A stretch of DNA of 64,000 nucleotides from Mycobacteroides chelonae CCUG 47445 (GTDB taxonomy: Bacteria; Actinomycetota; Actinomycetes; Mycobacteriales; Mycobacteriaceae): contig NZ_CP007220.1 in the NCBI RefSeq assembly GCF_001632805.1, forward strand, positions 2,046,001-2,110,000. The letters run 5' to 3'. The notes below the pieces were generated by a model. It was not told the origin of the DNA, searched no databases, and saw only the letters and a program-made list of their open reading frames with translations. Below are positions 27,937-38,840 of this stretch, one piece after another. The position numbers and the translations under genes were made by a program. Each line of letters opens with the position of its first letter. The first letter of the stretch is position 1.

Positions 27937-27956
27937 CCGCCCAATAAGCTGTGCGC

Positions 27957-29207
27957 ATGCAGTCATGGGCGTCGCCGCCAGTTCCTGAGCTCGACGGTCG
28001 TGGTCCGCAGCTGCGGCTGTACGACACCGCCGATCGTCAGGTGCGGCCGGTGACGCCATCGTCCGGTCCGGGTTCCAGTGCGACCATGTACGTGTGTGGC
28101 ATCACGCCCTATGACGCCACTCATCTGGGTCACGCCGCAACGTATCTCACGTTCGACCTGATCTACCGGCAATGGCTCGACGCGGGCCTGGATGTGCATT
28201 ACGTACAAAACGTCACCGATATCGACGATCCGCTCTTCGAACGTGCCGACCGGGACGGCATCGATTGGCGCGAGCTGGGGGACCGGGAAACCGACTTGTT
28301 CCGGGGCGACATGACCGCGCTGCGGGTGCTGGCACCCCGGGAGTATGTGCGCGCCACCGAGTCGATTGCCTGCATCATCGAACTCGTCGAGAAGATGCTG
28401 GCTTCGGGCGCCGCATATGTCGCGGACGATCCCGAGTATCCGGACGTCTACTTCCGGGTCGACGCTACCGAGCAGTTCGGCTATGAGTCGGGATACGACA
28501 TCGAGACCATGTCGCGGTTGTTCGCCGAACGCGGCGGGGATCCGGACCGGCCCGGCAAGGCCAACGAACTTGACGCTCTGCTCTGGCGCGCGGCACGGCC
28601 GGGAGAGCCGAGCTGGGAGGCTTCGTTTGGATCGGGCCGTCCGGGCTGGCATGTCGAGTGCTCGGCGATCGTGCTGCGCGAGCTCGGTGCCGGTATCGAC
28701 ATCCAGGGCGGCGGCAGCGATCTGATTTTCCCGCACCACGAATACAGTGCCGCGCACGCTGAAGCCGTTACGGCGCAACGCCGTTTTGCGCGACACTATG
28801 TGCACGCCGGGATGATCGGCTGGGACGGACACAAGATGTCCAAGAGCCGGGGGAACCTGGTGAAGGTTTCTGTGCTGACCGCCGAGGGCGTGGATCCGGC
28901 GGCCATCAGGCTCGGGTTGTTGGCCGGCCACTATCGCGCCGACCGGTCCTGGAGTGATGCCGTGCTCTCCGACGCGCAGGCCCGGTTGGCCCGCTGGCGC
29001 CACGCGGTGGCACTGCCCGCCGCGCCGAGCGCCCGCGATGTGGTGTCTCGAGTGCGGCGTTATCTCGCCGATGATCTCGATACGCCGAAAGCAATTGCTG
29101 CACTGGACAACTGGGTGACCGACGCGTTGGCCTACGGTGGACATGATGCTGCGGCCGGCGCGCACGTGGGTCATGCGGTGGATGCCCTGCTGGGAGTGCA
29201 GCTGTAG
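27957..29207 (+). CDS. mshC: Cysteine:1-D-myo-inosityl 2-amino-2-deoxy-alpha-D-glucopyranoside ligase MshC
   Basis: ATP-dependent ligase that joins cysteine to GlcN-Ins in mycothiol synthesis, evolved from cysteinyl-tRNA synthetase. The 416 residues show the zinc and HIGH-like region [17 protein letters not shown] near residue 44, then [13 protein letters not shown] and [13 protein letters not shown] (zinc ligands). The adenylation loop [13 protein letters not shown] is near 285. The short C-terminal part (no anticodon-binding domain of normal size) separates it from CysRS. ATG 27957 gives [12 protein letters not shown], like other mycobacterial MshC. Confidence 0.96.
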
Positions 29208-29216
29208 CGTCGGGCC

Positions 29217-30098
29217 ATGGGTTCAACGCTGAACAATATCGCCGGCAAGACGGTCATGATCACCGGCGGCGCCGGCGGCATCGGGGTGGAAGTCGCACAC
29301 AGATTGCACGCCAAGGGTGCCAACCTTGTGCTCACCGATCTGGACGAGACCAAGCTTGCGGCAGTTGCCGACGATCTGGGCCGGGATCGAGTACTGGTGG
29401 CGGTGGCCGACGTGTGCGATCTGGCAGCGCTGGAAGGGGCCGTCGCCCAGGCGGTCGAGCGATTCGGCGGCATCGATGTGGTGCTGGCGAACGCGGGCCT
29501 GCTGACGTTCGGCTCGGTGCTGCAGGTGGACCCTGCGACCTTCAAGAAGCTGATCGATGTCAACGTGCTCGGGGTGTTTCACACGGTGCGCGCAGCCTTG
29601 CCCTCGGTGATCGAGCGGAAGGGGTATGTGCTCATCGTGTCGTCTCTGGCCGCCTATGCGGCGGCACCGGGGGTCACGGCATACAACGCCTCCAAGGCTG
29701 CGGTCGAACACTTCGCGAACGCGCTGCGTCTGGAGGTGGCGCATCGGGGCGTTGACGTGGGATCGGCACACATGTCGTGGATCGACACCTCGATGGTGAA
29801 CGACCAGAAGGCCAACCTGTCGGCGTTCTCGGAGATGCTGACCCGGCTGCCACCGCCATTGAGAACCGTTACGTCTGTCGAAGCGTGTGGCAAGGCCTTC
29901 GTCAAGGGCATCGAAAAACGGCGTCGACGGATTAACTGCCCCGGCTGGGTGGGGGTGACCCGCTGGCTCAAGCCGGTGTTGTCGACGTCGCTCGGCGAAT
30001 TGCCCATGCGGGGCATGATTCCGGAGATCCTGCCCCGTATGGACGCCGAGGTGGCCGCTGTGCAGCGTGCCGCCCGTGGTGAAACCGGCGAGGCCTGA
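29217..30098 (+). CDS. Short-chain dehydrogenase/reductase
   Basis: 293-residue classical SDR. The NAD(P)-binding TGGAGGIGVEVAHRL is near residue 18, NAG in VVLANAGLLTF near 92, the catalytic Ser in LIVSSLAAYAA near 140 and the YxxxK motif in YNASKAAVEHFANAL near 157. The C-terminus carries a basic stretch (EKRRRRINCPGWVGVTRWL) before a final helix. It starts nine bases after mshC and is probably co-transcribed. Its place matches Rv2129c. The substrate is unknown. Confidence 0.92.
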   Translation: MGSTLNNIAGKTVMITGGAGGIGVEVAHRLHAKGANLVLTDLDETKLAAVADDLGRDRVLVAVADVCDLAALEGAVAQAVERFGGIDVVLANAGLLTFGSVLQVDPATFKKLIDVNVLGVFHTVRAALPSVIERKGYVLIVSSLAAYAAAPGVTAYNASKAAVEHFANALRLEVAHRGVDVGSAHMSWIDTSMVNDQKANLSAFSEMLTRLPPPLRTVTSVEACGKAFVKGIEKRRRRINCPGWVGVTRWLKPVLSTSLGELPMRGMIPEILPRMDAEVAAVQRAARGETGEA

Positions 30099-30114
30099 CA
30101 CACGCACCCGGCTG

Positions 30115-30131
30115 ATACCCACTACGGGTAT
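30115..30131. promoter_or_regulatory. Copper-box palindrome (RicR/CsoR-type) upstream of the copper island
   Basis: ATACCC ACTAC GGGTAT is a perfect 17-base palindrome of six-base arms around five bases. It matches the TACCC-N5-GGTA motif described for the copper-responsive repressor RicR of M. tuberculosis. It lies 24 bases before the likely start of the first island gene. No ricR or csoR gene is in the window, so the regulator would act in trans. A second copy with the same arms stands in the ATPase promoter (32271-32287). Confidence 0.75.
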
Positions 30132-30155
30132 GGGGTGTGGGTGTACGGTGAAGTG

Positions 30156-30584
30156 ATGGCACCCGGCGGTGAACGCGCAGCGCTGCGCGCGGGCTTGGGC
30201 ATGGCATTGGTGATGTTGCGGGCCCTGCTGATCATCGCGGTCGTGCTGGTGCCGGTGCTGAAGTGTCCCGTGGCACGGGACACGGCCGCTGGAACCACGG
30301 GCGCGTCGGTCGCATCTGTTCACCTCGCTGAGGTGCCGTATGCACTCGCTTCTCTGCCCGGTGCCGAGGATCATCACGATTGCTACCCGCTGCCCGCGGT
30401 CATCGCGGCGGCGTCCGGCGTGTTCTCGGGGTGGGTCATCGCGCTCACGGTCGTGGCGTTCGTGGCACTCGCGGTGTACGCGATGTGGCGCCCAACGGCG
30501 CACGGTCCGCCGCGGGGGCAGCCCCATTTGTTGTTGCGTGACGGCATTGATCGTCTTATGCATTTTTGCGTGGCGCGGCGCTGA
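30156..30584 (+). CDS. Small two-helix membrane protein, copper-island paralogue 1
   Basis: 142 residues from ATG 30156 (GTG 30135, 30141 and 30153 are open alternatives). A transmembrane helix (about 18-38) ends in PVLKCPVARDT. An extracytoplasmic loop with EDHHDCYPLP follows, then a second helix (about 90-110) and a cytoplasmic tail HGPPRGQP leading to the end GIDRLMHFCVARR. The layout and the end are shared with the gene at 31400, so the two are paralogues. The Cys and His residues facing outward could bind copper; that is inference, resting also on the box at 30115. I do not recognise a named family, although LpqS-like proteins should be compared. Confidence 0.72.
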   Translation: MAPGGERAALRAGLGMALVMLRALLIIAVVLVPVLKCPVARDTAAGTTGASVASVHLAEVPYALASLPGAEDHHDCYPLPAVIAAASGVFSGWVIALTVVAFVALAVYAMWRPTAHGPPRGQPHLLLRDGIDRLMHFCVARR

Positions 30585-30717
30585 GCGCTTTCTGTATCCC
30601 CGCCGGCGACCACCGCTAGCGTCCGAAAGCACGCCCCATCGCCTCGTGGGGGCGACGTGCTGGCATTTCGCCAATCATGCATGACTCCAACACCTTTCAG
30701 ATAAGGACACGATTATC

Positions 30718-31062
30718 GTGGCTACATCATCTTTGGCTGCGCCGCGCGCAGTTGCCGGTCGCCTCGGTGGATCGGCATTGGCGGCCGGGTTCGCCGCCAT
30801 CGCATTGGCAGTGCCTGCTTCCGCGGGTCCGACGCAACCCGGGCCGCAGGCGCCGGGTAACGCCCAGGCCCTGATTGCCGCATTGAAGCTCCGTGGAGAT
30901 CAGGTCATCATCAACCGCAGTGGGCCGCTCATGCCGCTGTCGCAATGCACCGCAACCTCGGTACGGGTCGGTCGGCACATTTACGACCAGGTGCCGCAGC
31001 GCAAGGGTCCGACAAAGCGCCAGCTGGCCTCCCACGTCATGTACGTGACCGTGCAGTGCTAG
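30718..31062 (+). CDS. Small secreted protein, copper-island family member A
   Basis: 114 residues with an exported N-terminus (ALAAGFAAIALAVPASAGPT, cleavage after ASA near residue 36). The mature protein of about 78 residues carries NAQALIAALKLRGDQVIIN, then PLSQCTATSVRVGR and the C-terminal YVTVQC. Two cysteines, one internal and one as the last residue, probably form a disulfide. The same layout recurs at 31071 and 31936, giving a three-member family within 1.5 kb. AAGGAC precedes GTG 30718. Function is unknown. The 133-base spacer 30585-30717 shows no gene. Confidence 0.75.
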   Translation: MATSSLAAPRAVAGRLGGSALAAGFAAIALAVPASAGPTQPGPQAPGNAQALIAALKLRGDQVIINRSGPLMPLSQCTATSVRVGRHIYDQVPQRKGPTKRQLASHVMYVTVQC

Positions 31063-31070
31063 GGAACATC

Positions 31071-31406
31071 GTGTACCGCAACATTTTTCCTTGTCGGTCC
31101 ATCCTGGCGGCAACAATCCTTGTGGCGGGGCTGGCAGTCGCCACATCTGCGGCCGCCTCGGCCGGTCCGGCGTCATCCGATGCGCTGCAGGTCATCACGC
31201 AGTTGCAACGCCAAGGTGACAAGGTCGTCGTCCGGCGCACGGGCGACAAACCGCTGCAGATGTGCGCCGTGACATCGGTGCGCGAAGGAGAGTCCCAGTA
31301 CTGGTGGACTCAGCCTCGCATCGCCGACCCCAACCGCGCGAAACGTGCCAACGGGGTAGGGACACAGCTGATATACCGCACCGTGTACGTCGACGTTCAA
31401 TGTTGA
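31071..31406 (+). CDS. Small secreted protein, copper-island family member B
   Basis: 111 residues beginning at GTG 31071, just after AGGGAAC, with a signal peptide (SILAATILVAGLAVATSAAA). The mature part aligns with member A: DALQVITQLQRQGDKVVVRR, PLQMCAVTSVREGE, and the end VYVDVQC. The internal Cys and the last-residue Cys are kept. It starts nine bases after member A stops, and the second membrane paralogue overlaps its end, so the four genes read as one operon. The longer open frame upstream runs through member A in another frame and is not used. Confidence 0.73.
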   Translation: MYRNIFPCRSILAATILVAGLAVATSAAASAGPASSDALQVITQLQRQGDKVVVRRTGDKPLQMCAVTSVREGESQYWWTQPRIADPNRAKRANGVGTQLIYRTVYVDVQC

Positions 31407-31819
31407 TCAGTTCCCGGATGCTGCGCACTGCGGTGGGCGTCGTTATGGCGGCGGTCCTTGTCGTGCTTGTGTTGCCGTGTGCGGCGATGCACCGCGACGT
31501 GAAGGCTGCGGCCATTTCGCTTCACCATGCTGTCGCGGCTAGGTCCTCTCAGCAGCTCACCGATGTTGCGGCCCGGCGGCATGATCACATCGGGCAGGCT
31601 CAGGCCTTCTTATGCACCTTCGTCGGCGAGGTCGTTACCGCAATGGCCATGCCCGCCGCGGCGCGTCTGCTGTGGTTGGTCGCGGCCGTGATCGTCGTCT
31701 GCGTGTTGGCCTCTGTGATCTGTCCACCGGTGACTCGGGGTCCGCCGCCACATACCGAAGCCGCAACAACAGTCAGCGGTCGCACCCTCATCCATCGCCT
31801 CTGCGTATTGCGGCGCTGA
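31400..31819 (+). CDS. Small two-helix membrane protein, copper-island paralogue 2
   Basis: 139 residues from ATG 31400, which overlaps the stop of member B by seven bases (ATG 31418 is an alternative). The first helix ends in VLPCAAMHRDV, followed by an outward loop with SLHHAV and RRHDHIGQAQAFLC. A second helix (about 88-108) leads to RGPPPH and the end GRTLIHRLCVLRR. The Cys after helix 1 with RD two to four residues later, the His-rich loop, the GPP and the C-V-x-R-R end match the 30156 protein. A role in copper handling is inferred from context. Confidence 0.7.
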   Translation: MLISSRMLRTAVGVVMAAVLVVLVLPCAAMHRDVKAAAISLHHAVAARSSQQLTDVAARRHDHIGQAQAFLCTFVGEVVTAMAMPAAARLLWLVAAVIVVCVLASVICPPVTRGPPPHTEAATTVSGRTLIHRLCVLRR

Positions 31820-31935
31820 TCCCGGCCGAGCCGGGTTTTCGCATGCGTCTACGCATCCGAGCTCTGGCCTGCAGCCAGCCATCAGTCACCTCCGTGCCTA
31901 CTCGGTGCGGCCTTACACATAGAGGTTCTTGTGCC

Positions 31936-32259
31936 ATGAACACCACTTTTTGCGGGCGTCTGCCCAAATTGACACTGATCGCGGCCGCCTTTGCGGCGGC
32001 GTTACTGGCGGCTCCGGCCGCCCAAGCCGGTCCGGGTGCGCTCGGCGACGCCCAACAAGTCATCGATGCTCTCAAGGCTCAGGGCAACAAGGTCATCGTC
32101 ACCAAGACGGGCAACAAGCCACTGTCGCAATGTGTGGCCACGCGGGTACGCAAAGATCTCGACGTCTTCGGCAACCCGCGTATCTACCCGAACATCTCGT
32201 CCGGGCCCACCAGGCGGGTATGGCTGTACAGCGTGTACCACGTCGATATCCAGTGCTAA
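31936..32259 (+). CDS. Small secreted protein, copper-island family member C
   Basis: 107 residues with a signal peptide (LTLIAAAFAAALLAAPAAQA, cleavage after AQA near residue 32). The mature part DAQQVIDALKAQGNKVIVTK, PLSQCVATRVRKDL and the end VYHVDIQC is closest to member A. ATG 31936 is chosen over the far upstream open frame because it gives the signal peptide; there is no strong ribosome-binding site. It lies 116 bases after the second membrane paralogue and just before the copper-box promoter of the ATPase gene. Confidence 0.75.
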   Translation: MNTTFCGRLPKLTLIAAAFAAALLAAPAAQAGPGALGDAQQVIDALKAQGNKVIVTKTGNKPLSQCVATRVRKDLDVFGNPRIYPNISSGPTRRVWLYSVYHVDIQC

Positions 32260-32263
32260 TCCC

Positions 32264-32292
32264 TTGACCTATACCCCTGGGGGGTATTTAAT
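32264..32292 (+). promoter_or_regulatory. ATPase promoter with embedded copper box
   Basis: TTGACC (32264-32269) and TTTAAT (32287-32292) form -35 and -10 elements 17 bases apart. The palindrome ATACCC CTGGG GGGTAT (32271-32287) fills the spacer exactly, so a bound repressor would block RNA polymerase. The arms equal those of the box at 30115. The ATPase ATG at 32299 is seven bases after the -10, which suggests a leaderless transcript. Confidence 0.78.
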
Positions 32293-32298
32293 CGGGGT

Positions 32299-34461
32299 AT
32301 GAGTTCGCATAGGGATCACCCTCACCATCCGTCGTCTCACGCGCCGGCCGCAACATGCGAATCGGACGTGCATGCTGCGCATGGCAGCATGCACGAACAT
32401 CACGGGCATCATGGCCAACCCGGGGAGCATGCGGATCACACCGGCCATCAGCACCATGACCATGGCGGTCATGGTGATCATGTCAGGCAGTTCCGCAGGT
32501 TGTTCTGGATCATGTTGGGGCTCTCGGTGCCGGTGGTCGCGTTCAACGACATGTTTGCGATGGTCATCGGCTACCAACTGCCCACCACCGGCTGGATCCC
32601 GTGGATATCGCCGGTTCTTGGCACCGTCATTTACTTCTGGGGCGGCAAGCCCTTCCTGACCGGGGCGGTCGCCGAGGTGCGCGGACGCAGACCGGGAATG
32701 ATGCTGTTGATCGGCCTGGCGATCACGGTGGCCTTTGTCGCATCGTGGGGCGCCAGTCTCGGCCTGATCGATCACCAGCTCAATTTCTGGTGGGAGCTGG
32801 CGCTTCTGGTGGTGATCATGCTGCTGGGGCACTGGATCGAGATGCGGTCGCTGGCGCAGACCACGTCGGCGCTCGACTCGCTGGCGGCGCTGCTGCCCGA
32901 TAGCGCCGAACGCGTCGAGGGGGATGCGGTGGTGCCCGTCGCGCCGGCCGATCTTCGGGTCGGTGACATCGTGGTCGTGCGTCCGGGTGGCTCGGTGCCC
33001 GCCGACGGCCGAATCACCGAGGGCAGTGCCCATCTGGACGAATCGATGGTGACAGGGGAGTCCCATCCGGTGCGCCGACAGATCGGCGATCAGGTAGTTG
33101 CCGGAACCGTGGCCACCGATTCGGGCCTGCGTGTGGAAGTCACGGCAGTCGGTGATGACACCACGCTGGCCGGGATCCAGCGGCTGGTCGCCGATGCGCA
33201 GGCCTCCAGCTCGCGCGCGCAACGGATCGCCGACACCGCTGCGGGATGGCTGTTCTGGTTCGCTCTGGGTGCTGCCGCGCTGACGGCCGTGGCTTGGACG
33301 ATCCTGGGGGAGCCCGATACCGCGGTGGTCCGCGTCATCACGGTGCTGGTGATCGCCTGCCCGCATGCGTTGGGTCTGGCCATTCCTCTGGTCGTCTCCA
33401 TCGCCACCGAGCGTGCGGCCCGGGGCGGGGTATTGGTGAAAGACCGCCTGGCCCTGGAGCAGATGCGCACCGTGGACGTCGTGCTGTTCGACAAGACCGG
33501 AACGCTGACCAAGGGTGCCCCCACCGTGACGGGTGTCGAACCTGCCGACGGACGCGATGCCGACACCGTGTTGGGGCTGGCGGCCGCGGCCGAGACCGAC
33601 AGTGAGCATCCACTGGCTCGCGCCATCGTGCAGGCCGCTCGCGGACGGGGACTGCCGATCGTTGCCGCGAGCGGCTTTTCCTCCGAGCCTGCGCTGGGGG
33701 TCACCGCGGACGTCGCAGGCGTGCAGGTCGCCGTCGGTGGCCCTGCTTTACTGAAAAGGCATGGTGCGCAAGAGCTACCGATCGCCGACAGATGGCGTAC
33801 CGAAGGTGCGATCATTCTGCATGTGCTGACCGACGGGCAGGTCGCCGGCGCGCTGCGCTTGGCCGATGACATCCGGCCGGAGTCCCGGGACACCGTCGAG
33901 GCGCTACACAGGCTGGGTGTATCGGTGGTGATGATCACCGGTGACGCACATGCCGTGGCCAACACGGTGGCCGCTGAGCTCGGCGTGGATCGGGTGTTCG
34001 CCGAGGTGCGGCCGGAGGACAAGGCGGCAGCGGTGGCGCAGTTGCAATCCGAAGGACACACCGTGGCGATGGTCGGTGACGGTGTCAATGACGCCCCCGC
34101 GCTCGCGCAAGCCGATGTGGGCATCGCGATCGGAGCGGGCACCGATGTTGCGATCGCCTCGGCAGGTGTCATCCTGGGCAGCTCGGATCCGCGCTCGGTG
34201 CTCTCGGTCATCGAGTTGTCGCGAGCGGCCTACCGAAGGATGAAGCAGAACCTTTGGTGGGCAGCCGGATACAACCTGATCTCGGTTCCGTTGGCGGCGG
34301 GTGTGCTCGCGCCGATCGGATTCGTGCTTCCCATGAGCGTTGGGGCCATTCTGATGTCGGCATCCACCGTGGTCGTCGCGCTCAACGCACAGTTGCTGCG
34401 CCGCTTGGATCTTCGTCCGGAACAATCCGTGCGGCGCATCCTTACCGCACCTGGGCGGTGA
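32299..34461 (+). CDS. Histidine-rich CopB-type heavy-metal P1B-ATPase
   Basis: 720-residue ATP-driven metal exporter of the plasma membrane. There is no CxxC metal-binding domain at the N-terminus. Instead the first 61 residues hold 20 histidines (HEHHGHHGQ, GHQHHDHGGHGDH). The core has the actuator motif VTGESHPV near 252, the metal-site helix motif ACPHALGL near 353 (CPH, typical of CopB-like copper ATPases; CopA has CPC), the phosphorylation site FDKTGTLTKG near 396 and the hinge VGDGVNDAPAL near 592. About eight membrane helices are visible. The copper box in its promoter supports copper as substrate. Its last 20 bases overlap the convergent mbtD-like gene. Confidence 0.9.
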   Translation: MSSHRDHPHHPSSHAPAATCESDVHAAHGSMHEHHGHHGQPGEHADHTGHQHHDHGGHGDHVRQFRRLFWIMLGLSVPVVAFNDMFAMVIGYQLPTTGWIPWISPVLGTVIYFWGGKPFLTGAVAEVRGRRPGMMLLIGLAITVAFVASWGASLGLIDHQLNFWWELALLVVIMLLGHWIEMRSLAQTTSALDSLAALLPDSAERVEGDAVVPVAPADLRVGDIVVVRPGGSVPADGRITEGSAHLDESMVTGESHPVRRQIGDQVVAGTVATDSGLRVEVTAVGDDTTLAGIQRLVADAQASSSRAQRIADTAAGWLFWFALGAAALTAVAWTILGEPDTAVVRVITVLVIACPHALGLAIPLVVSIATERAARGGVLVKDRLALEQMRTVDVVLFDKTGTLTKGAPTVTGVEPADGRDADTVLGLAAAAETDSEHPLARAIVQAARGRGLPIVAASGFSSEPALGVTADVAGVQVAVGGPALLKRHGAQELPIADRWRTEGAIILHVLTDGQVAGALRLADDIRPESRDTVEALHRLGVSVVMITGDAHAVANTVAAELGVDRVFAEVRPEDKAAAVAQLQSEGHTVAMVGDGVNDAPALAQADVGIAIGAGTDVAIASAGVILGSSDPRSVLSVIELSRAAYRRMKQNLWWAAGYNLISVPLAAGVLAPIGFVLPMSVGAILMSASTVVVALNAQLLRRLDLRPEQSVRRILTAPGR

Positions 34462-37400
34462 GAGCCTCGATCACATGGTCCACGGAGGCGCCGCCGAGTA
34501 GATCTTGCACTGGCAGCTCGAAATTGAGCTCAGCCTGTACGCGTCGCCGAAATTCGAGCGCCTGCAACGAATCCAGGCCCATCGCCACCATGGGCATGGC
34601 GGTGTCGATGGAATCGGCCCGGTCGGCTCCGATGACCTCTGCGAGTAACTGCACAAGATGTCCGGGTCGGTTCTCGGGAGCCACCGCCGCGGGCCGGGTT
34701 ACCTCGGTGGACGCTACCGGCGCGCTGGTGTCGACGAGCTCGGAGAGCAGCGGACCGTATCCGAAGACTCCCAGTACTTCACGAGCCTGCGTGAGATCGA
34801 ACGCCCCGACAAGGGTGTTGCCAGTGTGTAGTCCCATCCCGACCGCGAGAGCATCGGCGGGTCTCATGGGATGGACTCCCGCCGCAGCCAGTTTCGCTAT
34901 GCCTGTGTCATCGAGGTCGAGGTGCGTGGTCCACTGGCCCCACTGCACGGACACGCAATCCAGTCCGGCAGCACGTTGTCGGGTCGCGAGCACGTCCAGC
35001 ATCCGGTTGCCCGCCGCGTACATCAGCTGGCCCTTGCCGCCGATCGTTGCCACCAGGGATGAGCACAAGACGACGCGGCAGAAATCGGTGCGGGGCAGTG
35101 CGTTGAGAACGTTCGTGATCCCTGCGACCTTCGCGTGCAGCGCCTGTTGGAACCGCTCGACCGTAATCTCGCTGAAGGGGAGATCCGAATAGTCCACCGC
35201 GGCATGGATGATGAGGTCCGCGGGGGCTTCACGTAGGTCCTCGGCCAGCGTGGCGATAGCAGAGGCATCGGTCACATCACACGACAGCGCACGGACCGTC
35301 GCGCCGGTGCTGCGGCGGATCGCGTCGAGCCGTCCGGTCACGGTGTCAGTCTCGCCGGAACGGCTGATCAGGGTGATTTGTCGGGTACCCAGCCGGGCAT
35401 AGTGCTCACAGAATTCCTGACCGAGTTTTCCTGTTCCGCCGGTTATCACGACGTGATCGGGTACTGCAGTTGCGGTTTCGTGGTCACTGTCCTGATCGGC
35501 ATCCAGAATGCGCTTGGCGTACATGCCGTCTGCCCGGAGCGCCAACTCCGATTCTCCGGCAGATTGCAGCGCGGCCAAGATGGTGCCGGCATTATCTGGG
35601 TGTGCCATATCGTGCGCGAGGTCCAGGTGTCGAAAGACAGTTCCTGGGTGTTCGGCACCCATGCAACGGAACCCGGCGGCGATCGCGGCGTGCACCGGAT
35701 GTGGCGATGCGTCTGTGGCGACAACCTCTTCGCCCCCGACCGTGACAATCCAGCAACCGGTGACAGAGTTCGACAGCTCTGGCCACCACGTGCGGTCGCC
35801 GAAGAACTGTGCCACCGCGTCGGCCGCCCCGAGATCATCGAGATATCCCGCAGCCGGCAGCACGATCACCACAGTGTCTGCGTCTCCGGGACCGGACACC
35901 TCTGAGTTGCCGATGATGTGCGCCGATGAACCGAAATCCGATGCGCAGTCCCGGATTGCCGCGGTGAGTGCCCCGGCCTCGCCGGTGGCGTCGATGAGTC
36001 CGTAGGCCCTTGGCGGCATCATCGAGCGCCTGGTCACCTTGGTCCAGGCCTCGCGTAACAATCGTGTGTGCGAGGGGGAGTCCGCATCGTGTTCCGGGCG
36101 ATCGGCGTCCGTGTTGTTGGGCTGCTTGGGTACTGACACCCCACCGCCCGCCCCGCGGTACGACAACCAGAGCGGAACATCGTTGTTCTGGACGTTCGGG
36201 AAGTCACGTAGTGGTAGCGAAACCGGTTCGGATGTCTCGGTGCGTAGCGCGTCCCAGTTGTAGTCGAGATCGTGCACGGCGAGGTTCGCGAGGTTGGCGG
36301 TGAAGTCGGCCAGATCCGTTGCGGCCCGGGTGGATGTGCCCACCACGCACGCGGTGCGTTCGGCGTCTAGAGCCGAGAGGTTTTCGCGGATCGCCAGCTG
36401 CAACGTGGGGTGCTCGCCCAACTCCACGAAGGTGTCAACCTGGGATCTCACCGCAGTCGCGATGGCACGGTCGAAGCGGACGATGTTGCGCAGGTTCCAG
36501 AACCAGTACTGTTCCAGGGGGGTATCACTTGTCATCGGTGTACCGAGTGTTGCTCCGATGCAATCGATTTCGGAAGGTTCGAACTCGCTGACGCTGAGGC
36601 GCTCGGCAAGTGTCCCGCGAATATCCGCGCCGATCGAGGCGATCATGCTGGTATGAGCCGGGTATCGCACCGCGATGGTCCGTGCGAAGACACCGGCTTG
36701 GGTGAGGTGTTCGACGATTTGGTGGACGGTCTCGTGGTGGCCGGAGATTCCCACCATCGACGGGGAGTTGATCACCGAGAGTTCGGCCCAACCTGATTGC
36801 CGTGCAAGAAGTTCCTCGCAAGTATCGCGGTCTGCGGCGATCACTGCCATGGTGTAGTCGTCCGCGGGGAACTCGTCGGCGATCTTGGCTCGGGTACCCA
36901 CCACGGTTACCGCATCGGCAAGGGACATCACGCCGGAGACATAAGCCGCAGCGATCTCACCTTGACTATGTCCGATGGTGGCGTGGGGGTGCACACCCAC
37001 CGCACGCCACAACGCGGCCAGGCCGGCCATTTGAGTGAACAGGGCCGGCTGAACCGTGCTCGCGCTGTCATCTGCGGGGAGATGTTCGTCGAGAAGGTAA
37101 TTCAGTGGTGAACGGCCGAACTGCGCATTGAATAATTCCGCGCATCGGTCGACCTCTGTCCGGAAATCGTGGAATCGATCGTAGAAGAGGTTCCCCATTC
37201 CCGGGCGTTGTCCGCCCTGCCCGGGGAACACGAATCCGCGTCGGCGTGAGGTCGCGGGCTCGGCATTTCGGATCACATGGGCGTGGTCAGTGCCAGCGAC
37301 CACGGCCCGCAGTGCCGCTTCCAGTTGGTCGCGGTCTTCGGCGATGATCAGCGCGCGGAAGCGGCGCGCAATGCGGGTCCGAAAGATCATGCCCGCAATA

Positions 37401-37531
37401 CGATCCGGGGTGATTTGCGGGTGGTCAAGCACATACACGAGGAGTGCGGAGGCCTCCCTGCGCAGCACCTCCGGAGTATCCCCAGAGAGCAGAACAGGGA
37501 TGGTCCCGTTGGGTAAGCGATGGCTAGACAT
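34442..37531 (-). CDS. mbtD: MbtD-like polyketide synthase (AT-KR-ACP)
   Basis: 1029-residue megasynthase. After a short N-terminal region comes an acyltransferase (FPGQGGQRPGMGN near residue 102, active-site GHSQGEIAAAYVSG near 184). A degenerate region and a ketoreductase follow (NADP loop GGTGKLGQE near 697, YAAGNRMLD near 840), and the protein ends in an acyl-carrier domain (MGLDSLQAL, phosphopantetheine Ser near 983). This is the AT-KR-ACP order of M. tuberculosis MbtD (about 1000 residues), which works with a separate ketosynthase to build the beta-hydroxy acyl unit of mycobactin. The start is ATG 37531, overlapping the ketosynthase stop by eight bases; the longer open frame lies in the ketosynthase gene. 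Confidence 0.87.
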   Translation of the reverse strand: MSSHRLPNGTIPVLLSGDTPEVLRREASALLVYVLDHPQITPDRIAGMIFRTRIARRFRALIIAEDRDQLEAALRAVVAGTDHAHVIRNAEPATSRRRGFVFPGQGGQRPGMGNLFYDRFHDFRTEVDRCAELFNAQFGRSPLNYLLDEHLPADDSASTVQPALFTQMAGLAALWRAVGVHPHATIGHSQGEIAAAYVSGVMSLADAVTVVGTRAKIADEFPADDYTMAVIAADRDTCEELLARQSGWAELSVINSPSMVGISGHHETVHQIVEHLTQAGVFARTIAVRYPAHTSMIASIGADIRGTLAERLSVSEFEPSEIDCIGATLGTPMTSDTPLEQYWFWNLRNIVRFDRAIATAVRSQVDTFVELGEHPTLQLAIRENLSALDAERTACVVGTSTRAATDLADFTANLANLAVHDLDYNWDALRTETSEPVSLPLRDFPNVQNNDVPLWLSYRGAGGGVSVPKQPNNTDADRPEHDADSPSHTRLLREAWTKVTRRSMMPPRAYGLIDATGEAGALTAAIRDCASDFGSSAHIIGNSEVSGPGDADTVVIVLPAAGYLDDLGAADAVAQFFGDRTWWPELSNSVTGCWIVTVGGEEVVATDASPHPVHAAIAAGFRCMGAEHPGTVFRHLDLAHDMAHPDNAGTILAALQSAGESELALRADGMYAKRILDADQDSDHETATAVPDHVVITGGTGKLGQEFCEHYARLGTRQITLISRSGETDTVTGRLDAIRRSTGATVRALSCDVTDASAIATLAEDLREAPADLIIHAAVDYSDLPFSEITVERFQQALHAKVAGITNVLNALPRTDFCRVVLCSSLVATIGGKGQLMYAAGNRMLDVLATRQRAAGLDCVSVQWGQWTTHLDLDDTGIAKLAAAGVHPMRPADALAVGMGLHTGNTLVGAFDLTQAREVLGVFGYGPLLSELVDTSAPVASTEVTRPAAVAPENRPGHLVQLLAEVIGADRADSIDTAMPMVAMGLDSLQALEFRRRVQAELNFELPVQDLLGGASVDHVIEALTAQVR

Positions 37532-38840
37532 CGTCGCCGTCCTCTCCCTCTGCGGGCATCGCGATGATGGCGTGCGCATTGGCGCCACCGGCTCCGAAGG
37601 ATGAGACCGCACCGTACCGGATGCCGTTCGTCGGTTCCCAAGAGTGCAGTTTTGTGGCCAGTCGGATCCCGGTCATCGACCAGTCGACCTTGGTGGTGGG
37701 GTTGTCCGCGAACAGCGTCGGTGGGATATGTCCCTGCTGACCGGATAACAGCAGTTTGATCAGGCCCATCATTCCTGCGGCGGATTGAGCGTGCCCGGCA
37801 TTGGATTTCGCCGATCCGAGAAGTGCGTTGGAGCCGCCGGCTCCGTACGTGCTTTGCAGCGCGAGGATCTCGAGCGGATCACCCGCACGGGTGCCGGTTC
37901 CGTGTCCTTCGAGCATCCCAATGTCGGCCGGATCGACACCGGAGGCGGCGATGGTCGCGGCGACCAACTTGGCCTGTGCGCGTCCTCGTGGCACCAGAAT
38001 GGGTTTTCCGCCGCCGTTGTGGTTGGTGCGGACGGCCATGATACGTCCGTACACCCGATGTCCCAGAGCGCGTGCGCGCGATTCACGTTCCAGCACAACC
38101 ATTCCAACGCACTCACCCCAGAGGGTGCCGTTCGCCTCGTCGGAGTATGAGCGGCAGTGCCCGTCCGGGTCTAGTGCGTGCATCCGTGAGAATTCATAGA
38201 ACCCCCCGGGTGACCCCATGACACAGACTCCACCCGCGATGGCCCATTCGCATTCGTCGGCTCGAACCGCGGATGTGGCGACATGCAGCGCCGCCAGCGA
38301 TGAGGCGCATGCGGAGTCGATGCACATGGATGGCCCGATAAGTCCAAGTTGGTGCGAGATGCGGCCGGCGGCGCCGAGTTGTCCACGACCCACCACACGC
38401 ATGCCGCTATGGGCGTTGACTTCGCCGACCGGAGGACCGTATTCGTTGGGGGAGATGCCAATGAATACACCGGCCTCTGAGCCGTCGAGTGCGCCGGGGT
38501 TGAGGCCGGTGTTTTCTAGAGCTTTCCATGCCGAGCGCATGGCCACCCGCTGCTGCGGGTCCATGGCGACGGCCTCCCGTTGTGTGATGCCATAGAAGGT
38601 GGGGTCGAAAGCGCCTGCATCGGTAAGGAATCCACCCGCATCTGACACACGGCCCCAGCCGTCGAGATTGGACAGTGACAACAGTTCGTCGATAGGCCAA
38701 TCGCGATCACGGGGGAATGGGCTGATGAGCTCGCGGCCGTCGGCCAGTGCGCGCCAGAACGCTGCAGGGGTGTCGATTCCTCCGGGCGCCTCGATCGCCA
38801 TCCCGGAGATGACAACGGGATCGGCGTCGGTGGCGCTCAT
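37524..38840 (-). CDS. mbtC: MbtC-like ketosynthase
   Basis: 438-residue stand-alone beta-ketoacyl synthase with the full catalytic triad: Cys in CIDSACASSLAALH near residue 176, His in EGHGTGTRAGDPLE near 312, and His in SAKSNAGHAQSAAGM near 350. The N-terminus VVISGMAIEAPGG and AMDPQQRVAMRSAW are normal for modular PKS ketosynthases. Size and position, directly before the AT-KR-ACP gene, match M. tuberculosis mbtC-mbtD. It overlaps the thioesterase gene by four bases. It would condense malonyl units held on the MbtD carrier. Confidence 0.88.
   Translation of the reverse strand: MSATDADPVVISGMAIEAPGGIDTPAAFWRALADGRELISPFPRDRDWPIDELLSLSNLDGWGRVSDAGGFLTDAGAFDPTFYGITQREAVAMDPQQRVAMRSAWKALENTGLNPGALDGSEAGVFIGISPNEYGPPVGEVNAHSGMRVVGRGQLGAAGRISHQLGLIGPSMCIDSACASSLAALHVATSAVRADECEWAIAGGVCVMGSPGGFYEFSRMHALDPDGHCRSYSDEANGTLWGECVGMVVLERESRARALGHRVYGRIMAVRTNHNGGGKPILVPRGRAQAKLVAATIAASGVDPADIGMLEGHGTGTRAGDPLEILALQSTYGAGGSNALLGSAKSNAGHAQSAAGMMGLIKLLLSGQQGHIPPTLFADNPTTKVDWSMTGIRLATKLHSWEPTNGIRYGAVSSFGAGGANAHAIIAMPAEGEDGDDV

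What the first reader, a model, noticed from the sequence alone, without database searches (positions are those of the whole stretch)
30115..34461. A compact copper-controlled island with two families of uncharacterised small proteins and a CopB ATPase
Seen: six same-strand genes between two perfect ATACCC-N5-GGGTAT palindromes. They are membrane protein 1, secreted A, secreted B, membrane protein 2, secreted C, and a His-rich CPH-type P-ATPase. Known: TACCC-N5-GGTA is the RicR copper-repressor motif in M. tuberculosis, and CPH ATPases are CopB-like copper exporters. Inference: the five small genes are periplasmic or membrane copper-handling factors working with the ATPase. This is the best candidate in the window for an undescribed system, since none of the small proteins is a copper factor I can name.
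Basis: partly seen in the sequence, partly recalled or inferred. Interest (0 to 1): 0.86.

Follow-up and report, generated by a model that had tools for sequence, protein, structure and literature searches.

The report
Copper-operon leader ORFs with structured RNA
A copper-controlled gene cluster in a rapidly growing mycobacterium carries two copies of LpqS, a supposed lipoprotein that now looks like a regulatory leader: it carries a known ribosome-stalling motif, and in most of its relatives its stop codon is followed by a conserved folded RNA just before the next gene.

Summary
The island is real and fits RicR copper control: the exact box occurs 15 times in this genome against 4 for the reversed pattern, ricR is encoded, and boxes lie at other copper genes. 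Five small genes lie between the boxes; the second box heads an ordinary CopB-type ATPase.

What appears undescribed is what LpqS does. A model of only the non-coding stretch after LpqS, run over 148 genomes, gave 114 strong listed hits; all 114 directly follow an LpqS-type C-terminus. The RNA shows compensatory changes. The stop is UGA in 117 of 117, and the last Arg codon CGC in 81 of 83 (background 31%). LpqS carries an RAPP-like ribosome-arrest motif in 126 of 137, 18-24 residues before its end.

Best reading: LpqS is a leader ORF that senses copper during its own translation and gates the next gene, like CruR and CutF but unrelated in sequence. Arrest, copper sensing and gating are inferred. 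In the window itself the RNA has diverged: supported for the secC unit, weak for the secA unit; pairing with the Shine-Dalgarno is supported only outside Mycobacterium. The secreted proteins weakly resemble PASTA domains and are mostly not LpqS-linked elsewhere.

The parts
30115..30131 (.). RicR-type palindrome ATACCC-ACTAC-GGGTAT, 24 bp before the first LpqS ATG
   Evidence: an exact box also precedes the equivalent gene in three relatives
30156..30584 (+). lpqS1 (142 aa, two hydrophobic segments, HGPP motif 23 aa before the C-terminus, ends CVARR-UGA)
   Evidence: (NF052429 25.4 bits, below cut-off 35)
30585..30717 (+). 133-nt leader between lpqS1 and secA; RNA element only weakly supported here
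   Evidence: R1 match 30537-30684, 14.8 bits, E 0.0026, part of which is LpqS coding; no R2 or R3 match here; fold z -0.86
30718..31062 (+). secA, secreted single-domain protein (GTG start)
31071..31406 (+). secB, same family (GTG start)
31403..31819 (+). lpqS2 (138 aa, TTG start, RGPP motif 22 aa before the C-terminus, ends CVLRR-UGA; start overlaps the secB stop)
   Evidence: (41.8 bits, above cut-off 35)
31784..31940 (+). structured RNA element: lpqS2 C-terminal codons, leader, Shine-Dalgarno and start of secC
   Evidence: R1 31772-31943 23.0 bits E 6.8e-6; R3 31784-31940 20.1 bits E 0.0024, the only window match with E up to 1; no R2 match here; fold z -1.67
31936..32259 (+). secC, same secreted family (ATG start)
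32271..32287 (.). RicR-type palindrome ATACCC-CTGGG-GGGTAT, 11 bp before the ATPase ATG
32299..34461 (+). CopB-type P-type ATPase, 720 aa, His-rich N-terminus, CPH motif
   Evidence: (TIGR01511 570.4 bits, cut-off 397)

Best explanation
The island is a RicR-repressed copper locus. One transcript from box 1 probably carries lpqS1-secA-secB-lpqS2-secC; box 2 drives the CopB-type exporter. LpqS is most likely not chiefly an effector but a cis-acting leader ORF. Its nascent chain (signal/anchor, short extracytoplasmic part with two nearly invariant His, second hydrophobic segment, RGPP-like motif, conserved C-terminus at the stop codon) is expected to arrest the ribosome at the RGPP-like motif. 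An RNA element starting at the UGA stop folds into a long stem (P1) and a second stem (P2), and in other genera a third helix (P0) pairs the Phe/Leu-Cys-Ile codons with the sequence just before the next gene's start, hiding its Shine-Dalgarno. Copper binding or co-translational insertion of the chain would release the arrest, letting the ribosome reach the stop codon, open the pairing and start the next gene. Transcription (RicR) and translation (LpqS) would then both have to report copper. Shown by computation: boxes, RicR gene, LpqS identity, the RNA element and its linkage to LpqS, RNA-level constraint at the stop codon, the RAPP-like motif. Inferred: RicR binding, arrest, copper sensing by the chain, gating of the downstream gene.
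For: Boxes and RicR. LpqS. Non-coding model R2 over 148 genomes: 114 listed hits with E <= 8.2e-6; 112 lie directly 3' of a listed LpqS match (99 at the same offset, right after the stop), and the other two also follow an LpqS-type C-terminus. 116 of 150 listed LpqS matches carry it. Base pairing: 85.8% of cells paired, 44 cells changed on both sides against 18.6 in shuffles (0 of 500), slid controls at most 47.9% paired; cross-genus alignment 80.7%, 72 cells against 34.0 (0 of 500), P0 with both-sided changes at 4 of 9 pairs. UGA in 117 of 117; last Arg codon CGC in 81 of 83 representatives, background 31%, while the invariant penultimate Arg uses CGC in 25 of 94. RAPP-like motif in 126 of 137 LpqS; control 1 of 486 longer, partly homologous ORFs of the same loci; RAPP/RGPP motifs stall ribosomes in tested leader ORFs (PMC10987492, passages). 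The next start lies 85-125 nt after the stop in 95 of 121 loci, and the next gene varies: 72 cysK2-like, 13 secreted family, 8 PPE, 27 other or unclear, 1 none. Six more elements on four named mycobacterial plasmids, E <= 1.1e-13.
Against: R2 has no match in the window's own genome (E <= 0.01); in the window the element is seen only with R1 and, for one unit, R3, and the two leaders do not fold unusually well. Within Mycobacterium the P0 pairing is not supported: synonymous-codon test mean z 0.06, p 0.34 (70 loci), and own-versus-swapped strands 1098 of 2000 (81 loci) and 1643 of 2000 (68 with an AGAAG-like site). In the cross-genus count two of the five measures were matched by some shuffles (18 and 33 of 500). 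32 of the 36 weaker listed R2 hits are not next to LpqS. 60 of 118 LpqS ORFs have no box within 2 mismatches in the stretch searched, so RicR control is not universal by this motif. The conserved GxxLLTR part of the C-terminus is not explained by RNA pairing, and the two nearly invariant His would also suit a metal-binding effector. No expression, binding or arrest data were available. DUF2946 homology, which would tie LpqS to the CruR/CutF mechanism, was not found.
Confidence: 0.58

Rival explanations
1. LpqS is a genuine envelope copper-handling protein, and the structured RNA only couples its translation to that of the next gene or tunes mRNA stability, without sensing copper.
For: Two hydrophobic segments and two nearly invariant His among 16 aligned LpqS; NCBIfam calls it a putative copper homeostasis (lipo)protein; an LpqS-deficient mutant is reported attenuated (title of a cited reference seen in PMC8525567).
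Against: All six invariant columns of the 16-row alignment lie in the last ~25 residues, where a known arrest motif sits; in 116 of 150 listed LpqS a conserved RNA starts at the stop codon, before different genes.
Confidence: 0.27
2. The RNA is a riboswitch that binds a metabolite (for instance a cysteine-pathway compound, since a cysK2-like gene is its commonest neighbour) and LpqS is incidental.
For: Compact stems with conserved unpaired nucleotides; 72 of 121 next genes are cysK2-like.
Against: 114 of 114 strong R2 hits sit at LpqS-type stop codons; the LpqS leader also precedes PPE, secreted and other genes.
Confidence: 0.08
3. One reading: all five small proteins are periplasmic or membrane copper-binding factors working with the ATPase.
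For: RicR-type boxes and the same families beside exact boxes in three relatives.
Against: No His/Met-rich pattern in the secreted family; weak resemblance to PASTA domains; outside the clade only 8 of 113 listed members lie within 6 kb downstream of a listed LpqS; LpqS looks regulatory.
Confidence: 0.07

Closest known systems
CruR (Bordetella pertussis bp2923, DUF2946)
   Same: Small exported protein heading a copper operon, RAPP motif near the C-terminus, long intergenic region, proposed arrest relieved by copper (PMC9426467, abstract and passages)
   Different: No DUF2946 match above chance; no CXXC in the window's LpqS; motif ~21 residues before the end instead of 3; CruR switches its operon off through Rho, whereas lpqS and cysK2 are reported as copper-induced or copper-responsive (PMC10961391 and PMC9048740, passages); conserved RNA at the LpqS stop codon
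CutF (Rhodobacter capsulatus cutFOG, DUF2946)
   Same: Exported nascent chain, stem-loop between it and the next gene that hides the Shine-Dalgarno, copper-dependent (PMC9973294, passages)
   Different: No sequence relation found; the LpqS element starts at the stop codon, has several helices and recurs in many species
RAPP/RGPP arrest peptides (ApdA, ApdP, RQH family, SecM)
   Same: Signal-bearing leader ORF with an R-[AG]-P-P-like motif near the C-terminus (PMC10987492, passages)
   Different: Those were sought upstream of secA, secDF or yidC; LpqS sits upstream of other genes. The term LpqS does not occur in that paper's main text
RicR regulon of Mycobacterium tuberculosis
   Same: RicR gene, palindrome, lpqS, multicopper oxidase (PMC10961391, passages)
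   Different: Here lpqS units precede secreted-family genes, and boxes also lie before MspA-type porins
CopB-type (P1B-3) copper ATPases
   Same: CPH motif, His-rich N-terminus, TIGR01511 match
   Different: Nothing notable; the P1B-3 label and its signature residues are recalled, not from a call

Membership tests
LpqS (NCBIfam NF052429) | score above the curated cut-off of 35 bits, lpqS2 | tested here: met
   lpqS2 41.8 bits; the two L018 paralogues 57.5 and 38.0
LpqS (NCBIfam NF052429) | same cut-off, lpqS1 | tested here: not met
   25.4 bits over residues 22-142; it shares the C-terminal signature, so LpqS-like
DUF2946 (CruR/CutF) | Pfam PF11162 match | tested here: not met
   1 of 16 LpqS members, at E 5
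DUF2946 (CruR/CutF) | CXXC or CxxxC copper motif | tested here: not met
   absent from the two window LpqS (Cys positions); among 16 aligned LpqS only the C-terminal Cys is invariant
DUF2946 (CruR/CutF) | RAPP-like motif near the C-terminus | tested here: met
   126 of 137, but about 21 residues before the end
RAPP-type arrest peptide | N-terminal localisation signal in an upstream ORF | tested here: met
   hydrophobic N-terminal segment in the three LpqS examined, by hydropathy only; directly upstream of a gene
RAPP-type arrest peptide | located upstream of secA, secDF or yidC | tested here: not met
   next genes are cysK2-like, secreted family, PPE or other
RAPP-type arrest peptide | ribosome arrest in vitro or in vivo | not testable with these tools
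   needs toeprinting or ribosome profiling
RicR regulon | RicR palindrome at the promoter and RicR in the genome | tested here: met
RicR regulon | RicR binding and copper induction | not testable with these tools
   no expression or binding data
Copper-translocating P-type ATPase (TIGR01511) | above the cut-off of 397 bits | tested here: met
   570.4 bits
PASTA domain (secreted proteins) | alpha-beta3 fold matching solved PASTA domains | tested here: inconclusive
Rfam families | covariance-model match at the leader | tested here: not met
   none in window 29500-35000 at E <= 5; in six loci only two microRNA models at E <= 1, outside the leaders

The most novel reading that the evidence does not exclude
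LpqS, catalogued as a mycobacterial lipoprotein and linked to virulence, is a portable copper-sensing leader: an RAPP-type arrest peptide fused at its stop codon to a new class of structured RNA, present in Mycobacterium, in other genera of the family (loci of nine read here) and on plasmids, gating whichever gene follows; deletion phenotypes of lpqS would then partly be effects on that neighbour.
Probability: 0.5. Interest if true: 0.88.

Novelty: new variant of a known kind. Interest (0 to 1): 0.74.

Why it matters
Copper defence is a known point of contact between mycobacteria and host phagocytes, and its described control there is transcriptional (RicR, CsoR). A conserved RNA plus an arrest-type leader at LpqS would add a translational layer, give a function to a protein of unknown role, show that copper-sensing nascent chains exist outside the DUF2946 family, and warn that lpqS knock-outs may act through the downstream gene. 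It is directly testable with a reporter in a laboratory strain.

Tried and rejected
DUF2946 homology of LpqS: rejected as membership (1 of 16 at E 5). Rfam: nothing. PADLOC: nothing. P0 pairing within Mycobacterium: tested by synonymous codon draws (mean z 0.06, p 0.34; the same test against a stretch inside the next gene gave mean z 0.44, weaker pairing) and by swapping strands between loci, without support; kept only across genera (other genera 2 of 2000). An earlier test of complementarity against mononucleotide shuffles was weak (mean z 0.89, 27 of 114 with at most 5 of 50 shuffles as good). RNAalifold on the first 94-row alignment returned no structure; on 40 chosen rows it returned part of it. 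Intrinsic terminators: no excess over shuffles (3 against 2.4). The genome-contig scan for named LpqS loci gave one locus only (M. simulans), apparently the genome already drawn as G023, so it is not counted as independent. PDB by sequence for the secreted family: four hits at E 0.52-0.89, not meaningful. Foldseek against the PDB was not obtained. Papers: RicR+LpqS+copper, 8 papers; LpqS+mycobacteri, 33; cysK2, 14; no title or abstract start in these listings describes LpqS as a leader or an RNA element at cysK2. Two large bacterial RNA-discovery papers were searched: neither main text holds lpqS, cysK or mycobacteri. Most of the 33 LpqS papers were seen only as search listings; passages were seen of PMC10961391, PMC8131098, PMC9973294, PMC9426467, PMC9048740, PMC8525567 and PMC10987492; none was read whole.

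Rows dropped before counts: of 123 LpqS ORFs, five were dropped by hand for (two spurious, two duplicates, one very weak), one more (a frame-shifted end) before and after; one of the five and three weak LpqS-like ORFs were used (121 loci). The 40 rows of A3 and 38 of A4 were picked by eye from 94 representatives for a visible stem, so pair counts on them lean towards the structure. The 20 other-genus loci were the better-scoring listed LpqS matches; two of them, without a clear fold, were left out of A8, which holds 18 of them and 22 Mycobacterium rows. The lists compared are the rows printed, whose ends were not listed; one search used 64 of the LpqS rows (plus a dummy entry) and missed several LpqS found later (for example in L156, L176, L177, L179), so its counts are lower bounds. 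The 486 control ORFs are redundant (many loci share the same genes). The RAPP-like search excluded variants such as RAPA, RAPS and RAPG, which several of the 11 misses show.
Full report
What is in the window. The window is part of a single-contig 5,029,817-base genome. Named relatives of its secreted proteins are mostly Mycobacteroides; a chelonae-like species is my recall, not a tool result. The six genes and two perfect palindromes are there. The second palindrome heads the ATPase, so five genes, not six, lie between them. The second LpqS has no box of its own in the stretch searched (4 mismatches at best) and overlaps the secB stop, so lpqS1 to secC is probably one transcript.

Copper control. 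The exact box occurs 15 times in this genome against 4 for the reversed pattern, and 16, 15 and 15 times against 5, 4 and 6 in three relatives. Reading the genes beside the 15 own sites by eye: ricR with an upstream lipoprotein gene (two sites), a multicopper oxidase facing an LpqS gene, another LpqS before a cysK2-like gene, a CopA-type ATPase, copZ-copA (two sites), the two sites of this island, three porin pairs, one mmpS/mmpL-like pair, and two others. RicR is above its curated cut-off (182.2 against 175); the multicopper oxidase and the cysteine-synthase-like protein match their families strongly but below the curated cut-offs. Copper induction itself was not tested. Over 118 LpqS ORFs from many genomes, 41 have an exact box in the stretch 330-800 nt before the stop, 17 more one with 1 or 2 mismatches, 60 none; control stretches downstream have 7 exact and 3 with 1 or 2.

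The membrane proteins are LpqS. NCBIfam LpqS matches lpqS2 above and lpqS1 below its cut-off. LpqS is found in 78 of 148 genomes of the genus, 67 over the cut-off, up to 11 copies per genome, and in 50 of 251 genomes of the family, 43 over the cut-off, 15 of 31 genera. A review lists lpqS in the RicR regulon (PMC10961391, passages).

LpqS ends in a fixed signature. In 117 LpqS ORFs the end reads roughly G-x-x-L-L-T-R-[FL]-C-[ILV]-x-R-R-stop: Cys in 115 and the penultimate Arg in 117 of 117. About 21 residues earlier lies R-[GAS]-P-P: a RAPP-like motif in 126 of 137 (117 plus 20 from other genera), 88 of them exactly 21 residues from the end, against 1 of 486 other, partly redundant, ORFs of at least 200 aa in the same loci. 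RAPP and RGPP are tested ribosome-arrest motifs of leader ORFs upstream of sec and yidC genes; the same paper notes that most RAPP-like sequences of E. coli and B. subtilis that it tested did not arrest efficiently (PMC10987492, passages).

A conserved RNA starts at the LpqS stop codon. By my start-codon rule the next gene starts 85-125 nt after the stop in 95 of 121 loci; 72 next genes are cysK2-like, 13 secreted family, 8 PPE, 27 other or unclear, 1 none. Folding and alignment show a stem with an inner part (P1), a second stem (P2) and pairing of the stop-codon region with UCAG (Pa). On 40 chosen rows 85.8% of cells pair, 10 pairs have changes on both sides, 44 cells against 18.6 in shuffles, 0 of 500 as high, and slid controls pair at most 47.9%. 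A model of the non-coding stretch alone (R2) was run over 148 whole genomes: 114 listed hits with E <= 8.2e-6; 112 lie directly after a listed LpqS match, 99 at the same offset; the other two also follow an LpqS-type C-terminus, one of them in an interrupted frame. Of the 114, at most 38 are the training loci. Of 36 weaker listed hits, 4 follow a listed LpqS; three of the others were read and show no LpqS-type end. Of 150 listed LpqS matches 116 have the element. Six more elements lie on four named plasmids: three on Mycobacterium avium pS2a, one each on M. intracellulare pFLAC0181, M. intracellulare subsp. chimaera pDHQP20152271_3 and a Mycolicibacterium vanbaalenii plasmid, E <= 1.1e-13. In the (incomplete) gene tables three of the six lie between a hypothetical CDS and a cysteine-synthase CDS, two precede a cysteine-synthase CDS with no listed CDS directly before, and one precedes a PE gene.

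Constraint at the nucleotide level. The stop is UGA in 117 of 117. The last Arg codon is CGC in 81 of 83 Arg-ending representatives (of 94), against 31% CGC among Arg codons earlier in the same ORFs, while the neighbouring invariant Arg uses CGC in 25 of 94. Where the last residue is not Arg (14 of 117) the codon is UGC in 9. So the nucleotides GCUGA tend to be held, as expected if they pair (with UCAGC in Pa, or with AGCG before the next start).

Pairing with the Shine-Dalgarno. In 18 aligned loci of other genera the Phe/Leu-Cys-Ile codons (UCUGUAUC) face GAUACAGA just before the next start; the six central pairs are formed in 16 to 18 of 18 rows. Across genera this helix shows both-sided changes at 4 of 9 pairs and own strands pair better than swapped ones (other genera 2 of 2000, all 13 of 2000). 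Within Mycobacterium the same tests fail (1098 of 2000, and 1643 of 2000 for those with an AGAAG-like site; synonymous draws mean z 0.06, p 0.34). I therefore hold it probable that the next gene's start is gated by this RNA, and leave the exact helix open for Mycobacterium.

The element in the window. It has diverged. R2 finds nothing in this genome at E <= 0.01. R1, which includes LpqS codons, ranks the two window units first and second in the window (23.0 bits, E 6.8e-6; 14.8 bits, E 0.0026; next 11.6 bits). R3 finds only the secC unit (20.1 bits, E 0.0024). In the same genome R3 also finds the lpqS-cysK2-like unit (43.0 bits), the divergent LpqS-like unit before a secreted-family gene at about 1,227,527-1,227,962 (29.1 bits) and, weakly, the third LpqS unit (13.6 bits, E 0.14). 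Folding energies of the two window leaders are unremarkable (z -1.67 and -0.86).

The secreted proteins. They have 84 homologues at E <= 0.001 in the large protein database (7994 candidates scored); the NCBI and JGI names shown are all hypothetical protein, while UniRef names vary (DUF732, Ig-like, SH3, PASTA). The mature part has two invariant Cys and no evident metal-binding pattern. The model (mean pLDDT 72.8, 48 of 107 residues at 90 or more) is alpha-beta-beta-beta, and the best solved matches are PASTA-bearing proteins at low Z (4.1 and 3.6). The family is broad: 88 of 148 genomes, 16 members here. In the four-genome clade 10 of 37 listed members, and elsewhere 8 of 113, lie within 6 kb downstream of a listed LpqS, the latter at 2.8-3.6 kb; these are lower bounds. 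So only a subset is in LpqS operons; a role in envelope maintenance under copper stress is my guess.

Mechanism. Copper frees RicR from both boxes. Ribosomes translating LpqS are expected to pause at R-G-P-P, about 70 nt before the stop, too far upstream to open the RNA. If copper (or insertion of the second hydrophobic segment, which leaves the tunnel at about that moment) pulls the chain free, the ribosome runs to the UGA, melts Pa and P0 and lets the next gene start. CruR is proposed to work by copper-relieved arrest as well, with the opposite output through Rho (PMC9426467); CutF by a stem-loop over the Shine-Dalgarno (PMC9973294). LpqS would combine features of both without detectable relation to either. 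All of this paragraph about LpqS is inference.

Novelty. No Rfam match, and none of the ten paper searches listed a paper whose title or abstract start describes an LpqS leader or RNA; most papers were seen as listings only, and subscription papers are not held. I call it a new variant of a known kind (copper-sensing leader ORF), with a new RNA class as the novel part.

Noticed in passing
L016 (box G000:C1:141171), L017 (982598), L019 (2776677): RicR-type boxes lie upstream of MspA-type porin gene pairs at 3 of 15 sites here, and at 2 of 16, 2 of 15 and 2 of 15 sites in three relatives. Copper-responsive porins would be new to me; one paper search listed two papers, not opened.
   Followed up: partly
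L188 5528-5963 (G000:C1:1227527-1227962): A very divergent LpqS-like ORF with no exact or near-exact box in that stretch precedes a secreted-family gene and keeps the leader architecture, including an 8-bp P1 stem. It may sense something other than copper.
   Followed up: partly
window 31820-31839: The lpqS2 stop codon is followed at once by a GC-rich stem and four T (not reported by the terminator scan), which would compete with the P1-like stem; it could be an attenuator terminator.
   Followed up: no
L232 (M. avium plasmid pS2a): A plasmid copper island with csoR, a copper ATPase, a multicopper oxidase, two metal-sensitive regulators, PE/PPE genes and three LpqS-type RNA elements.
   Followed up: partly
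genomes G030, G119, G091, G074: 7 to 11 LpqS matches per genome; in the loci read, LpqS leaders directly precede PPE genes in 8 of 121: copper control of some PPE genes through LpqS leaders is suggested.
   Followed up: no
window 27951-30098 and 34442-37612: A cysS-like gene (possibly mshC, recalled) and a short-chain-dehydrogenase-like gene lie directly upstream of the island, and a large polyketide-synthase-like gene on the other strand downstream (named by eye).
   Followed up: no
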